From Bacteroidia bacterium (GTDB lineage Bacteria > Bacteroidota > Bacteroidia > CAIKAF01), in the NCBI GenBank assembly GCA_016742095.1, contig JACVCJ010000002.1:62001-126000 (forward strand): DNA of 64,000 nucleotides, given 5' to 3'. Each line of letters opens with the position of its first letter. The first letter of the stretch is position 1. Below are positions 912 through 55,707 of the stretch, piece by piece. The position numbers and the translations under genes are program-made. Under the pieces are notes generated by a model that saw nothing but the letters and a program-made list of their open reading frames with translations, ran no database searches and was not told the origin of the DNA.

Positions 912-2000
912 ATGCTTCGTACTAAATCTTTATTCGTACTGCTGGCGCTGGTCCTTGTACTTCCACTGAAAGCCGCCCTGCAGCCCGGCTTCGATAAACA
1001 GGAGTACCTGGAAATGCTGCGGATCATCGCCACATTCTCTGAGAACCCGGCCTCTACATTTCCGAAACCGGAACACTATACCCGCATTCACCGTTCACCG
1101 GCCTTTGTCATGGACAATATGTACGATCTCTGGTACAACCCGGCCGAAAAAGCCGTGGCCATACACCTGCGCGGTACCACGGGCAAGGCCATCAGCTGGC
1201 TTGAGAATTTCTACGCAGCCATGATCCCCGCCGAAGGTTCGGTACAGCTGGGCAACGGCCAACAGTTCGCCTATAAGTTCTCTTCCGATAAAAGAGCGGC
1301 CGTACACGTGGGTTGGACCGTTGGACTGGGCTATATGGTAAACGATATGAAGACCCGCCTCGACTCCGTGCTCAACAGCGGGGTACGCGACCTGGTGGTG
1401 GTAGGACACAGCCAGGGCGGAGCGCTCGCCTTCCTGATGACGGCCTACCTGCGCCAGGCACAGCTCGACGGTAAAATTCCGGCCGATACACGCATCAAGA
1501 CCTATTCCAGCGCCGGCCCCAAGCCCGGTAACCTGTATTTTGCCTACGATTACGAACGCCAGACACAGAACGGCTGGGCCTTTAACGTGATCAACGCGGC
1601 CGACTGGGTACCCGAAACGCCCATCTCCATACAGACACTGAACGATTTCAATACCACCAATCCCTTTAAAAATGCCAAAAAGCTCTTTAAAAAACAGAAA
1701 TTCCCCCAGAATATCCTGTTCAGGTATTTCTTTAACCAGCTGGAAAGACCCACGACCAAAGCCCGCAAAAAATACGAGAAATTCCTGGGCAAACTGGTAG
1801 GCGGATTCGTGGAAAAACAGGTGGAAGGCGCCGTGCCGCCCCCGTTCTTTCAAAGTAGCAATTATGTACGCACCGGCCACACCATTGTACTGTACCCCGA
1901 TGCCGAATACTATACGCAATTCCCGGAAAGCGACACCAACTTCTTTGTGCACCACATGTTTGCGCCCTATTATCACCTGGCGCAGAAACTAAATATGTAA
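912..2000 (+). CDS. Secreted lipase, class 3 family
   Basis: A 362-residue alpha/beta hydrolase. The ATG at 912 is chosen because it begins a clean signal peptide (basic start, then a hydrophobic stretch to about residue 21); an in-frame upstream codon at 813 would place the terminator hairpin inside the gene. The nucleophile elbow is GHSQGG at residues 165-170, with Ser167 as catalytic serine, preceded by beta-strand DLVVV, as in fungal-type class 3 lipases. A later Asp in the segment NAADWVPETP and a C-terminal His are candidates for the rest of the triad. It probably cleaves acyl esters in the periplasm or outside the cell. It stands alone, with terminators on both sides; the substrate is unknown. 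Confidence 0.8.
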   Translation: MLRTKSLFVLLALVLVLPLKAALQPGFDKQEYLEMLRIIATFSENPASTFPKPEHYTRIHRSPAFVMDNMYDLWYNPAEKAVAIHLRGTTGKAISWLENFYAAMIPAEGSVQLGNGQQFAYKFSSDKRAAVHVGWTVGLGYMVNDMKTRLDSVLNSGVRDLVVVGHSQGGALAFLMTAYLRQAQLDGKIPADTRIKTYSSAGPKPGNLYFAYDYERQTQNGWAFNVINAADWVPETPISIQTLNDFNTTNPFKNAKKLFKKQKFPQNILFRYFFNQLERPTTKARKKYEKFLGKLVGGFVEKQVEGAVPPPFFQSSNYVRTGHTIVLYPDAEYYTQFPESDTNFFVHHMFAPYYHLAQKLNM

Positions 2001-20234: not shown

Positions 20235-20804
20235 TTACTCAAAACTCATTTTCATATCCTTATGAGTAATTATACGCTCATAATCACGTATTGATTTGGA
20301 TTTATGAGAAAATATAAACAACCCTTCCAAACTCATTAATTCAGGATGGGTTTTATAAATATTCAAATTCGGAAAATCTGAATCCTGAGCCATATTATAG
20401 TTATATAAAATATAGCATTCATCTTTCCCCAATCGATTATAATCAAACATTGTAATTGAAAATTTCCTATACTCCCCTGAAAAAGGGCTATAAATACGTG
20501 CTAAGATTGGGTACTCAACATCGGGTTTCATTCCTTTCCAATAAATAGGATAACGACCTGTTAAATCCGTCTCATTTTCTCTCTGAGTAGTAAAATAAAC
20601 AGTATCCTTAATACTAAAAGTATAAAAAATTATGCTATCCGATGCACATAAATATACTTTCTGCTTGTCACCGTCAGCATCCACTTCTTTTTTTATAAAG
20701 TCTAAAACCTGATCCCGTTCAGGTTTTAAAGAATTTTCAGTTGGCATCATACAAGATGAAAATAGTATAATTACTGCGATAAATAAATAACTATTTTTTT
20801 TCAT
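20235..20804 (-). CDS. Lipoprotein overlapping RHS gene 1; candidate immunity protein
   Basis: A 189-residue protein with a signal peptide and lipobox S-S-C (Cys at about 18). I recognise no family. The mature part is polar and Lys/Tyr-rich, with strand-like segments such as [10 protein letters not shown] and E-C-Y-I-L-Y-N-Y. Base composition is clearly AT-rich compared with housekeeping neighbours. Its start overlaps the 3' end of the RHS gene by 14 bases, the usual position of an immunity gene after a polymorphic toxin. The equivalent gene of the second module (53936-54460) is also a lipoprotein but shares no visible sequence, as expected if each neutralises its own partner. The immunity role is inference. 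Confidence 0.7.
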
Positions 20805-22002
20805 TTTTACTTTCCTCCCATTTTTTATAAGATGTTTTAAGTCTGTTCATAATATCCTTAAATTCTGTATTTTCTATATCAGGATCATCGTTAGCTGGAG
20901 AGGTATATGGATCAGCGTTATTCTTTTCATAATACGTTTTCCCATATCCTTCAATATGATCTTCCTCTGTTGTGGATTTTTTAACACCCGGATACGCTGC
21001 AATACTCTTCCGGAGGTGGAGATAAACTTCGTGTGCTATTGTTATTATTTCTTCCAGACTTTCTGTCCCATTATTATGATAAATAATAATACCATGCATC
21101 GTTATTTCCTTTTTCTCTTTCTCCGCAAACTCGTCTTTTGTAATGCCTAAGGCTATAGCCTTGTTAGGGCTGGTCTTATCATTCGTTAACGATTTCATTG
21201 AAGCATGTGCAAATGTTTGTCCACTGACAGGAGTTATGATTTTGTCTGTTACTCCAAAATAAATATGAATTTTATCTTCTAAATCCTTTTGGGTAATATC
21301 ATGGAACAATTTTTGAGTAAGCACCTTATCAGCGCCAACAACTCTTAAATATGCTTCCGCCAGTTTATATGCCTTAGGATTATTTACAATTAGTTTTTCT
21401 GCTCCTTCAAGATCGATAGATCGGATTACATCGTTCTCAGCAAATGCATAAACACTATTCCAAGGATAGTCTTTAAATAGCGGATCAACAGACATAAATC
21501 TACCTATACGACTATCGTACGCCCTGTACTCGAACGAATACGAAGTCCCCTCCACGCCATATACCTCATCATCCTTCATCTGCCCATTGTATCCATACCG
21601 ATACCCGGAACTGTCTTCCCTGCATACGATCCGGCTTTCCATACGCATTTCTTCTATCTCTACATAACAGATACTTACCCGGCAGGGAGCGTTAATATAA
21701 AAAAATACCAGCCCCGCCGTATCATTTGCCGTAAAAGTAAACTGATGTCCGCCGGAACTATGGAACCATTGCAGGCTGCTCTGCTGTAGATTGGCCCCGG
21801 CCAGCAGGGAATCACAATCCCCGATATCCGCGTTGAAACTCACCCGGTACATACGCCCCGGCACCGTGCCGGGTATTCTCTTGCCCAATCGCTTACCCGG
21901 CTGGTCCAGTATCATACAGCCTTCATCTGTTTCCGGACGGGTTTGAGCTAAAATGGCGGTGCAGGTTACCAGACCCCATAACAGGGTAAGTATCCTTTTC
22001 AT
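20791..22002 (-). CDS. Miniature RHS-core protein with variable C-terminal domain (module 1)
   Basis: A 403-residue protein. It has a signal peptide (1-19), then a secreted beta-type domain (about 20-130) with conserved [10 protein letters not shown] and C-R-V-S-I-C-Y. A single RHS-associated core follows (about 132-190): G-Y-R-Y-G-Y-N-G, then [16 protein letters not shown]. The C-terminal 200 residues are AT-rich in DNA and carry A-H-E-V-Y-L-H (His-Glu-x3-His) and, about 25 residues on, [11 protein letters not shown], a possible metal site. There are no upstream RHS/YD repeats, unlike classical Rhs toxins of over 1000 residues. Its N-terminal half is highly similar to the protein at 54457-55707. 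Toxin activity is inference from architecture. Confidence 0.8.
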
Positions 22003-22206
22003 AAAATAAGGTATTCGTATACGTAGCCGAAATATAAAACAAACAAACTAAAACTTTCTATAATAAAAAGTAAAATTAAAAGCAGGTTCCTTTAAGAAAA
22101 ATGACGTGATTCTAATCTTTTTGTCCCTCTATACCTTCCCTTTGCCGAATTTTTTGGCAGATACGCCCGAAATTCTGTATACTTATACCATCAGTATAGA
22201 AACAGA

Positions 22207-53935: not shown

Positions 53936-54460
53936 TTATTTAACATATTCCCATGGGAGCTTTAGACATCCTTTGCCGTGTTTGTACTTATAAAAATAAA
54001 TCCCTTTCTCTATTGAGAAAACTACTCTGCCAGAATCTGATGTATATGGCACTTCGCAATTCGTTATTTGTCCTAATCGTGGAGTTAGAGTAAGATCATA
54101 CACTGTTTCAAAATTCTCTTTTCTATCCGAATTAATTTTCACTAAGTAATCCACAGCAGGAATAATAGCGCTTTTACATGTTTCCGCAGTTATAGTATAA
54201 GAAAATTCTCTTGGTTCAGAATGTAAAGAGTCTTTAAGTATCATAATAGGGCAGCTAGTTTTGCAATCTTTATTAAGATGCGGAGGATAGTATAACAATG
54301 TGTCATTCCACACACTAAAAAACCCGACCATAGTATCCGCATATAATACAGCAACTGGCGCAAGATAATGTGATCCCGGATTTTTCACATCATCCTCCGT
54401 ATTGCAGGAATTAAGGACGAACGATAAAAATAGGGCTATTGCAAATATTTTCCTCATCAT
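53936..54460 (-). CDS. Lipoprotein overlapping RHS gene 2; candidate immunity protein
   Basis: A 174-residue protein with a signal peptide and lipobox N-S-C (Cys at about 19). The mature part contains six Cys (for example K-D-C-K-T-S-C-P) and strand-like segments; no known family. It has no visible similarity to the lipoprotein of module 1. Its ATG overlaps the RHS stop by four bases (ATGA), so it is co-translated. AT-rich like the toxin-like half of the upstream gene. Immunity role is inference from position. Confidence 0.7.
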   Translation of the reverse strand: MMRKIFAIALFLSFVLNSCNTEDDVKNPGSHYLAPVAVLYADTMVGFFSVWNDTLLYYPPHLNKDCKTSCPIMILKDSLHSEPREFSYTITAETCKSAIIPAVDYLVKINSDRKENFETVYDLTLTPRLGQITNCEVPYTSDSGRVVFSIEKGIYFYKYKHGKGCLKLPWEYVK

Positions 54461-55707
54461 TTATCTTCAATTTTTAGTTTTTCAAATACTTTATCAATTC
54501 TATTGAATATTTCACCCATTACACTATTGGGGGAAACCTCATCATTTTTAGGCGAATACATAGGGTTTGTTCCATTTTTATAATATTCCTCTCCATATCC
54601 TTCCTTATGCTCTTGCCCAGGAGTTTTATTCACACCATTCAGATTATTAATGGCATGTAATTTGATTTCATGAGCTAAATCTTTAACCTGATTTTTTCGG
54701 AAAAAGGTATTTGAAATAACTATTGCATGGCCAGTTTTTCCAGCTAACTTTTCCTGCTCAAGTTGAACATAATTTAGTCCATTTTCTGCAACAATTTGAC
54801 TCTGTTGTCGGAAACCCTTATATCCCTCCGGATCATTTTCTCTTAATTGATTCTTTTCAGCTACTGAAAGTTGATCAAAGTAATACGCGCCTCTTATAAA
54901 AGTTTCAAATTTGGTCGCATCAAATGTAATTGAATAATCAATATCACTTGAAGACAGTATATAGAAGTTAATTTTATCCTTATGCTCAGGCTTTGTTATA
55001 GGAGTTAGAAGCTGCTCATTAAGAATATTATCGTTGTTTACTACTTTTGTAAACGTATTATATAAATCTTTGGTCGCATCACTGTTTCCTACTATAATTT
55101 TCTCTAATCCTTCAAGATCGATTGCTCTTATCACATCACTTTCTGCGAAGGTATATGGGCTATTCCATGCGAAATTGTCGGCCAATAAATCCACACTCAA
55201 AAACCGTCCGATACGACTATCGTATGCCCTGTATTCAAACGAGTACGATGTCCCCTCCACGCCGTAAACCTCGTCATCCTTCATTTGTCCATTGAAGCCG
55301 TAGCGATACCCCGCACTGTCTTCTTTACAAACAACCCTGCTTTCAATACGCATTTCTTCAACCTTTACATAACAAATACTTACCCTGCAGGGCGTGTTAA
55401 TATAAAAAAATATCAGGCTCAGCGTATCATTTGCCGTAAAGATAAGCCGGTGTTCTCCGGAATTATAGAACCATTGCGTACTGCTCTGCTGAAGATGAGC
55501 CCCTGCCAGCAGGGAATCACAGCCCTCCAGAACGGCTTTGAAGCTCATCTGGTACATTCGGCCCGGAGCAGTACCGGGGATCTTTCTTGCCAGTCGTTTA
55601 CCCGGCTGGTCCAGGATCATACAGCCTTTATCTGCAGTGGGATGTGTCTGGGACCGGATGGAAATACAGACGAACAGCCCCATGATCAGGATAAGAATTC
55701 TTTTCAT
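54457..55707 (-). CDS. Miniature RHS-core protein with variable C-terminal domain (module 2)
   Basis: A 416-residue paralogue of the protein at 20791-22002. The ATG at 55707 matches the other copy's start. It has a signal peptide, a secreted domain with [10 protein letters not shown] and C-R-V-S-I-C-Y, and the RHS core G-Y-R-Y-G-F-N-G then [15 protein letters not shown]. The C-terminal 200 residues diverge strongly but keep A-H-E-I-K-L-H (His-Glu-x3-His), E-H-K-E-G-Y-G-E-E-Y-Y and Y-S-P-K-N-D-E. DNA is AT-rich past the RHS core and more GC-balanced before it. Together with the overlapping lipoprotein gene it forms a candidate toxin and immunity pair. Confidence 0.8.
   Translation of the reverse strand: MKRILILIMGLFVCISIRSQTHPTADKGCMILDQPGKRLARKIPGTAPGRMYQMSFKAVLEGCDSLLAGAHLQQSSTQWFYNSGEHRLIFTANDTLSLIFFYINTPCRVSICYVKVEEMRIESRVVCKEDSAGYRYGFNGQMKDDEVYGVEGTSYSFEYRAYDSRIGRFLSVDLLADNFAWNSPYTFAESDVIRAIDLEGLEKIIVGNSDATKDLYNTFTKVVNNDNILNEQLLTPITKPEHKDKINFYILSSSDIDYSITFDATKFETFIRGAYYFDQLSVAEKNQLRENDPEGYKGFRQQSQIVAENGLNYVQLEQEKLAGKTGHAIVISNTFFRKNQVKDLAHEIKLHAINNLNGVNKTPGQEHKEGYGEEYYKNGTNPMYSPKNDEVSPNSVMGEIFNRIDKVFEKLKIEDK

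What the first reader, a model, noticed from the sequence alone, without database searches (positions are those of the whole stretch)
20235..22002. Miniature RHS protein plus overlapping lipoprotein: a compact toxin and immunity candidate (module 1)
The sequence shows a 403-residue secreted protein with a single RHS core and a variable, AT-rich C-terminal half, overlapped by 14 bases with an unrelated lipoprotein gene. Classical Rhs toxins are over 1000 residues with a repeat cage; here the cage is absent and a signal peptide replaces T6SS-type delivery. That Rhs-core genes followed by small lipoproteins are often toxin and immunity pairs is established knowledge; that this short form is functional is inference.
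Basis: partly seen in the sequence, partly recalled or inferred. Interest (0 to 1): 0.85.

Follow-up and report, generated by a model that had tools for sequence, protein, structure and literature searches.

The report
Miniature secreted Rhs toxin with lipoprotein partner
Two small secreted proteins in this bacterium look like stripped-down Rhs weapons, each a sugar-binding-like domain joined to a probable protein-cutting toxin and encoded next to a membrane-anchored protein that probably protects the maker; they suggest that Rhs toxins can be built without the large cage thought to carry them, although nothing has been tested at the bench.

Summary
In detail: a 403-aa protein (20791-22002, -) with signal peptide and one Rhs core overlaps by 14 nt an unrelated lipoprotein gene (20235-20804, -). 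A second module 33 kb away (54457-55707 and 53936-54460, -) has the same design. Carrier part and upstream 80 bp are conserved between modules, with few amino-acid-changing substitutions, so these are genes, not Rhs debris.

New here: (1) residues 22-121 are modelled as a carbohydrate-binding-module-like beta-sandwich, homologous to the segment before the core of ~3000-aa Rhs proteins in the same genome; (2) both C-terminal domains share HExxxH-x12-K-x4-E-(x)-H, kept in relatives from two other families, pointing to a metallopeptidase-type toxin absent from Pfam/NCBIfam; (3) the same signal-peptide, sandwich, core, toxin architecture occurs as a tandem array in another Bacteroidia family (G312).

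Pairing with the lipoprotein is supported only by position: most HExxxH relatives have an envelope-type neighbour, but the G312 array has no immunity genes. The toxin fold could not be modelled (pLDDT mostly 25-55). The signal peptide is no replacement for T6SS: long Rhs proteins here also carry one. Verdict: a new variant of Rhs polymorphic toxin; toxicity, protease activity and immunity are inferred.

The parts
20791..22002 (-). module 1 miniature Rhs protein, 403 aa (stop codon included)
21946..22002 (-). signal peptide, about residues 1-19
   Evidence: sequence; conserved in module 2; cleavage site by inspection, no predictor was available
21640..21939 (-). CBM-like beta-sandwich, residues 22-121
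   Evidence: AF2 pLDDT mostly 54-77 per block; VIA-align Z 10.7 to 8xmz, 10.2 to 6yf6, 9.6 to CBM86; residues 46-204 align to the long Rhs tails
21403..21609 (-). Rhs-associated core, residues 132-200
   Evidence: TIGR03696, E 1e-10
20794..21393 (-). C-terminal toxin-like domain, residues 204-403, AT-rich
21016..21033 (-). HEVYLH (HExxxH), residues 324-329
   Evidence: conserved in module 2 and in L148, L149
20941..20964 (-). second motif EDHIEGYG, residues 347-354; E347 and H349 invariant in four relatives
20235..20804 (-). module 1 lipoprotein, 189 aa, candidate immunity protein; 14-nt overlap with the Rhs gene
22003..22082 (-). upstream stretch (promoter/5' leader) conserved with module 2
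   Evidence: local alignment
54457..55707 (-). module 2 miniature Rhs protein, 416 aa, HEIKLH and QEHKEGYG
53936..54460 (-). module 2 lipoprotein, 174 aa (MMRKIFAIALFLSFVLNSC), 4-nt overlap, no similarity to lipoprotein 1

Best explanation
Each module is a self-contained secreted polymorphic toxin and its immunity gene. Shown by sequence or model: signal peptide, CBM-like beta-sandwich, one Rhs core without YD-repeat cage, a C-terminal domain with HExxxH-x12-K-x4-E-(x)-H, and an overlapping lipoprotein gene. Inferred: the protein crosses the inner membrane by Sec; the CBM-like domain holds it on a glycan surface, its own or the target's; the C-terminal domain is a zinc metallopeptidase-type toxin acting in the envelope of competing cells; the lipoprotein, anchored in the maker's envelope, binds and blocks it. 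The modules probably arose when the last part of a long signal-peptide Rhs gene (sandwich, core, exchangeable toxin) came under its own signal peptide and promoter, then duplicated and diversified.
For: Two modules of the same architecture in the window. Carrier pN 0.145 against pS 0.63, upstream 80 bp conserved, C-terminal domain pN 0.45 against near-saturated pS 0.73. The carrier aligns to the tails of 3000-aa Rhs proteins with signal peptides in the same genome. CBM-like fold Z 10.7. HExxxH and E-(x)-H are kept while the rest of the domain diverges: invariant in M1, M2, L148 and L149, which come from three families; profile match to L149 E 8e-4 over 135 columns, 0 of 60 shuffles reach it, likewise 0 of 60 for L148. 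HExxxH is an accepted metallopeptidase motif (PMC10499314; PMC5512222). Metallopeptidase toxins on Rhs proteins are predicted in the literature (PMC3482391), and a Tox-MPTase3 Rhs occurs in the same family with a signal-peptide neighbour (PF15639, E 1e-8). By a fixed hydrophobicity threshold the neighbour is envelope-type after 13 of 15 HExxH/HExxxH/JAB-type Rhs cassettes, 21 of 29 other Rhs cassettes and 10 of 27 ordinary genes of the window (counted). The same architecture recurs in G312.
Against: The C-terminal fold was not obtained, so zincin membership rests on a motif, and HExxxH is not the usual HExxH. No library names the domain. The miniature Rhs genes of G312 have no immunity genes beside them. 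The two lipoproteins are unrelated although their toxin domains are related, which is unusual for one immunity mechanism, though very diverse immunity proteins for one toxin family are on record (PMC7073777). How a 400-aa protein without a cage would leave the cell or enter a target is unknown.
Confidence: 0.6

Rival explanations
1. Displaced, silent Rhs tips: the modules are remnants of C-terminal displacement, kept as a reservoir of toxin domains and not secreted.
For: Orphan Rhs-core ORFs of 270-650 aa without signal peptides are common in related genomes, often in arrays and are a known outcome of C-terminal displacement (PMC5727410).
Against: Both modules have a signal peptide, a conserved upstream region, no remnant of an upstream Rhs gene and strong constraint on the carrier; they stand alone between unrelated genes. 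The orphan tips examined in the same family lack a signal peptide.
Confidence: 0.15
2. Secreted metallopeptidase with a surface-anchoring lipoprotein: the lipoprotein tethers or displays the enzyme and is no immunity protein; the target may be extracellular or eukaryotic.
For: The CBM-like domain suits a surface-bound enzyme; MafA shows that a lipoprotein beside a polymorphic toxin can be an anchor (PMC3482391); G312 miniature Rhs proteins do without immunity genes.
Against: The carriers are 73% identical but the two lipoproteins are unrelated; an anchor that binds the constant carrier should be conserved, an inhibitor of the variable domain need not be. The lipoprotein gene shares the AT-rich composition of the toxin domain, not of the carrier.
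Confidence: 0.15
3. The C-terminal domain is a toxin of another enzymatic class; HExxxH is coincidental or structural.
For: The fold is unresolved; no family match; HExxxH lacks the usual i, i+4 spacing.
Against: HE...H and E-(x)-H stay invariant at 21-36% identity in four relatives, and in the low-confidence model they fall on helices that follow beta strands, as in zincins.
Confidence: 0.2

Closest known systems
Rhs polymorphic toxins with Tox-MPTase domains (Zhang et al. 2012, PMC3482391)
   Same: Rhs core followed by an exchangeable C-terminal metallopeptidase-type domain; adjacent small gene; Sec-dependent (T2SS) export is listed for most of these families
   Different: No YD-repeat cage; CBM-like domain follows the signal peptide; HExxxH instead of HExxH; lipoprotein neighbour, whereas that survey knew only one lipoprotein immunity family (Imm65, with Tox-JAB-1)
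Orphan rhs tips from C-terminal displacement (PMC5727410)
   Same: Short genes with core, toxin and neighbouring immunity gene
   Different: Orphan tips lack a delivery part and follow a long rhs gene; the window modules stand alone with their own signal peptide
TANFOR/BaCT polymorphic toxins of Bacteroidetes (PMC7073777)
   Same: Signal peptide, variable toxin, very diverse downstream immunity genes, export by T9SS suggested; SprA is present here
   Different: No TANFOR match; an Rhs core instead; 400 aa against large proteins
HExxxH metallopeptidases: DPP III/M49, TMCP (PMC10499314), polyvalent-protein MPTases (PMC5512222)
   Same: Zinc motif with one extra residue
   Different: No sequence match to solved structures found; third-ligand motif differs (E-(x)-H-x-E-G-Y-G)
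Signal-peptide miniature Rhs array of G312 (L114, L117)
   Same: Signal peptide, CBM-like domain, Rhs core, variable toxin; about 400-500 aa; carrier 28-34% identical to the window's
   Different: Tandem array, apparently behind a long Rhs gene, without immunity genes

Membership tests
Rhs polymorphic toxin | Rhs-associated core just before the variable C-terminus | tested here: met
   TIGR03696 at 132-200, 42 bits, cut-off 32.5; module 2, 36.5 bits
Rhs polymorphic toxin | YD/RHS repeats forming the cage | tested here: not met
   403 aa; no RHS repeat in Pfam or NCBIfam; residues 22-121 are a beta-sandwich instead
Rhs polymorphic toxin | constant carrier with variable C-terminus | tested here: met
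   73% against 36-37% identity between the two modules
Rhs polymorphic toxin | adjacent immunity gene | tested here: inconclusive
   overlapping lipoprotein gene; protection not testable here
Rhs polymorphic toxin | self-cleavage at a DPxGL-type site at the end of the core | tested here: inconclusive
   sequence is IDLEG at residues 196-200 in both modules; cleavage itself not testable here
zincin-like metallopeptidase | HExxH zinc motif | tested here: not met
   HExxxH in both modules; the longer motif is accepted in some metallopeptidase families
zincin-like metallopeptidase | zincin fold | tested here: inconclusive
   low pLDDT over the domain, mostly 25-55
Tox-MPTase (Pfam families) | match to the family models | tested here: not met
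   no Pfam match for the window C-terminal domains
T6SS effector | T6SS present and PAAR or similar delivery domain | tested here: not met
   no VipB in the genome, 98.6% complete; no delivery domain found
bacterial lipoprotein | signal peptide with lipobox | tested here: met
   LFSSC ending at residue 18, VLNSC in module 2 (by inspection)

The most novel reading that the evidence does not exclude
A distinct class of cage-less Rhs toxins in Bacteroidia: signal peptide, glycan-binding domain, Rhs core and exchangeable toxin in about 400 residues, occurring solo or in arrays, some carrying a new HExxxH metallopeptidase toxin neutralised by envelope lipoproteins. If these are active, the Rhs cage is not needed for toxin storage or delivery in these bacteria.
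Probability: 0.35. Interest if true: 0.75.

Novelty: new variant of a known kind. Interest (0 to 1): 0.55.

Why it matters
The Rhs cage is thought to enclose the toxin and to be needed for its delivery. A functional 400-residue secreted form would separate core and toxin from the cage and give a small, tractable system to ask what the core does on its own and how Bacteroidota lacking T6SS deliver Rhs toxins. The HExxxH domain would add a peptidase toxin family, and its neighbours suggest that lipoprotein immunity is more common than the 2012 survey indicated.

Tried and rejected
Homologues of the C-terminal domain by profile in 395 class genomes at E<=0.001: only the window's own; plasmids and viral contigs: none. 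The genome-contig scan found only core matches, with other C-termini. Relatives came instead from a motif scan of Rhs-core ORFs brought in by the carrier search. The L030 domain as a relative: 3 of 60 shuffles reach its score, so not accepted; L117 rejected (32 of 60); L150 matches over 14 columns only. Weak lipoprotein hits in other genomes: five were inspected and are unrelated proteins. Structure of the C-terminal domain alone: mean pLDDT 37, not used. The VIA list shows no metallopeptidase, but it covers residues 22-121 only, so this says nothing about the toxin domain. I first thought peptidase-type toxins have envelope immunity and other toxins do not; the wider tally showed that most Rhs cassettes here have envelope-type neighbours, so that contrast was dropped. 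The tally used simple hydrophobicity rules, not a trained predictor.

Full report
Observation. The first has a signal peptide and one Rhs core (TIGR03696, residues 132-200, E 1e-10) and no other domain in Pfam at E<=1. The second has a lipobox (LFSSC). GC falls from 0.48 in residues 1-203 to 0.34 in 204-403 and 0.30 in the lipoprotein gene, the pattern of an imported toxin-immunity cassette on a resident carrier.

A second copy. Module 2 lies at 54457-55707 (-), 416 aa, followed with 4 nt overlap by another lipoprotein gene at 53936-54460. The two Rhs proteins are 49% identical overall, 73% over the carrier and 36-37% over the C-terminal domain; the two lipoproteins share nothing detectable. 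Over residues 1-203 pN is 0.145 and pS 0.63 (dN/dS about 0.12); over 204-403 pN is 0.45 and pS 0.73, the latter near saturation, so that ratio is rough. The last 80 bp before the start codon are also alike, while downstream DNA is not. Pseudogenes or random Rhs debris would not show this.

Anatomy of the carrier. The stretch before and in the core (residues 46-204, or 72-204) aligns to the tails of two 3000-aa Rhs proteins of the same genome at 36-44% identity. These long proteins have signal peptides, the genome has no detectable T6SS sheath gene but has SprA of T9SS. So signal-peptide export is the rule for Rhs proteins of this organism, not a special feature of the short form. The AF2 model (two sequences only) is reasonable for residues 22-121 alone; that part is a beta-sandwich matching carbohydrate-binding modules: 8xmz Z 10.7 (rmsd 2.0, 96 aligned), 6yf6 Z 10.2, CBM86 6sgf Z 9.6, CBM4 1gu3 Z 9.1. 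A shared fold does not prove sugar binding. Cysteines 29, 63, 107, 112 and 127 are all kept in module 2.

The C-terminal domain. Both modules hold HExxxH (HEVYLH, HEIKLH), then E-(x)-H-x-E-G-Y-G, the best-conserved 15-residue block of the domain. No Pfam, NCBIfam or PDB sequence match exists. Compared by hhalign with the window profile, L149 (G269) gives E 8e-4 over 135 columns and L148 (G203) E 0.025; no shuffled version of either (0 of 60) reaches its score. Across the four, H125, E126, H130, K143, E148 and H150 (domain numbering) are among 13 invariant columns. HExxxH is the motif of DPP III and TMCP (PMC10499314) and of one set of conflict-system peptidases (PMC5512222). The Rhs-borne Tox-MPTase families of the 2012 survey are given with a five-residue HExxH-type motif (PMC3482391). 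Metallopeptidase is therefore the leading reading, but the fold is not modelled (pLDDT mostly 25-55).

The neighbour. L149 is followed within a few nucleotides by a 178-aa lipoprotein, L150 by an overlapping 198-aa lipoprotein, L030 by a signal-peptide protein with 4-nt overlap, and L148 by a lipobox reading frame whose start is interrupted at a TA repeat in this assembly. With one fixed threshold, the immediate neighbour has a hydrophobic N-terminus after 13 of 15 peptidase-type Rhs cassettes (the other two carry a lipobox on inspection), 21 of 29 other Rhs cassettes, and 10 of 27 ordinary genes of the window with the two modules removed (counted; samples small, related genomes not independent, cassettes whose neighbour is itself a miniature Rhs left out). 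This supports an envelope-located immunity protein but does not prove function. PMC3482391 notes one lipoprotein immunity family only, Imm65.

The architecture recurs. A carrier search over 360 class genomes found matches in 112, very often in short ORFs. Most short ORFs examined have no signal peptide and look like displaced tips. In G312, another family, contigs C246 and C8 hold a tandem array of signal-peptide, CBM-like, core, variable-toxin proteins of about 400-500 aa, apparently behind a long Rhs frame (3974 aa). There are no immunity genes between them. So the miniature Rhs form is not an accident of this genome, and lipoprotein pairing is not obligatory for the form.

Verdict. The finding is real and its interpretation largely sensible. 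It is a new variant of Rhs polymorphic toxin: miniature, cage-less, with a CBM-like domain and a HExxxH toxin domain. What is shown: genes, architecture, selection, motif conservation, recurrence. What is inferred: secretion route, peptidase activity, toxicity, immunity. I found no paper describing such a signal-peptide miniature Rhs form, but the library searched holds open-licence papers only.

Noticed in passing
L114 (G312:C246:15500-22249) and L117 (G312:C8:17500-21500): Tandem array of at least six signal-peptide miniature Rhs proteins with different C-termini (HEFKH, HTH/JAB-like and others) and no immunity genes between them.
   Followed up: partly
L148 about 1380-1450 (-): The lipoprotein reading frame next to a HExxxH Rhs tip has its start cut off by a frame change at a short TA repeat; either phase variation or an assembly error.
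   Followed up: no
L078 (G008:C30), residues 309-443 of the ORF: A Tox-MPTase3 (PF15639, E 1e-8) Rhs toxin followed with 4-nt overlap by a 157-aa signal-peptide protein; the 2012 survey lists no immunity for this toxin.
   Followed up: partly
G008:C2 (L077), G012:C40 (L082), G006:C12 (L076): Arrays of orphan Rhs tips without signal peptide, most with a small neighbour gene, in the window's own family.
   Followed up: partly
window 53936-54460 and 20235-20804: Lipoprotein 2 has an acidic stretch after its cysteine (CNTEDD), as in surface-export signals of Bacteroidota lipoproteins (from memory), lipoprotein 1 (CMMPTEN) much less so; the two may face different sides of the outer membrane.
   Followed up: no
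L117 550-aa ORF: Rhs tip with HEWMGH, the HExxGH spelling of DPP III; not detectably related to the window domains.
   Followed up: partly
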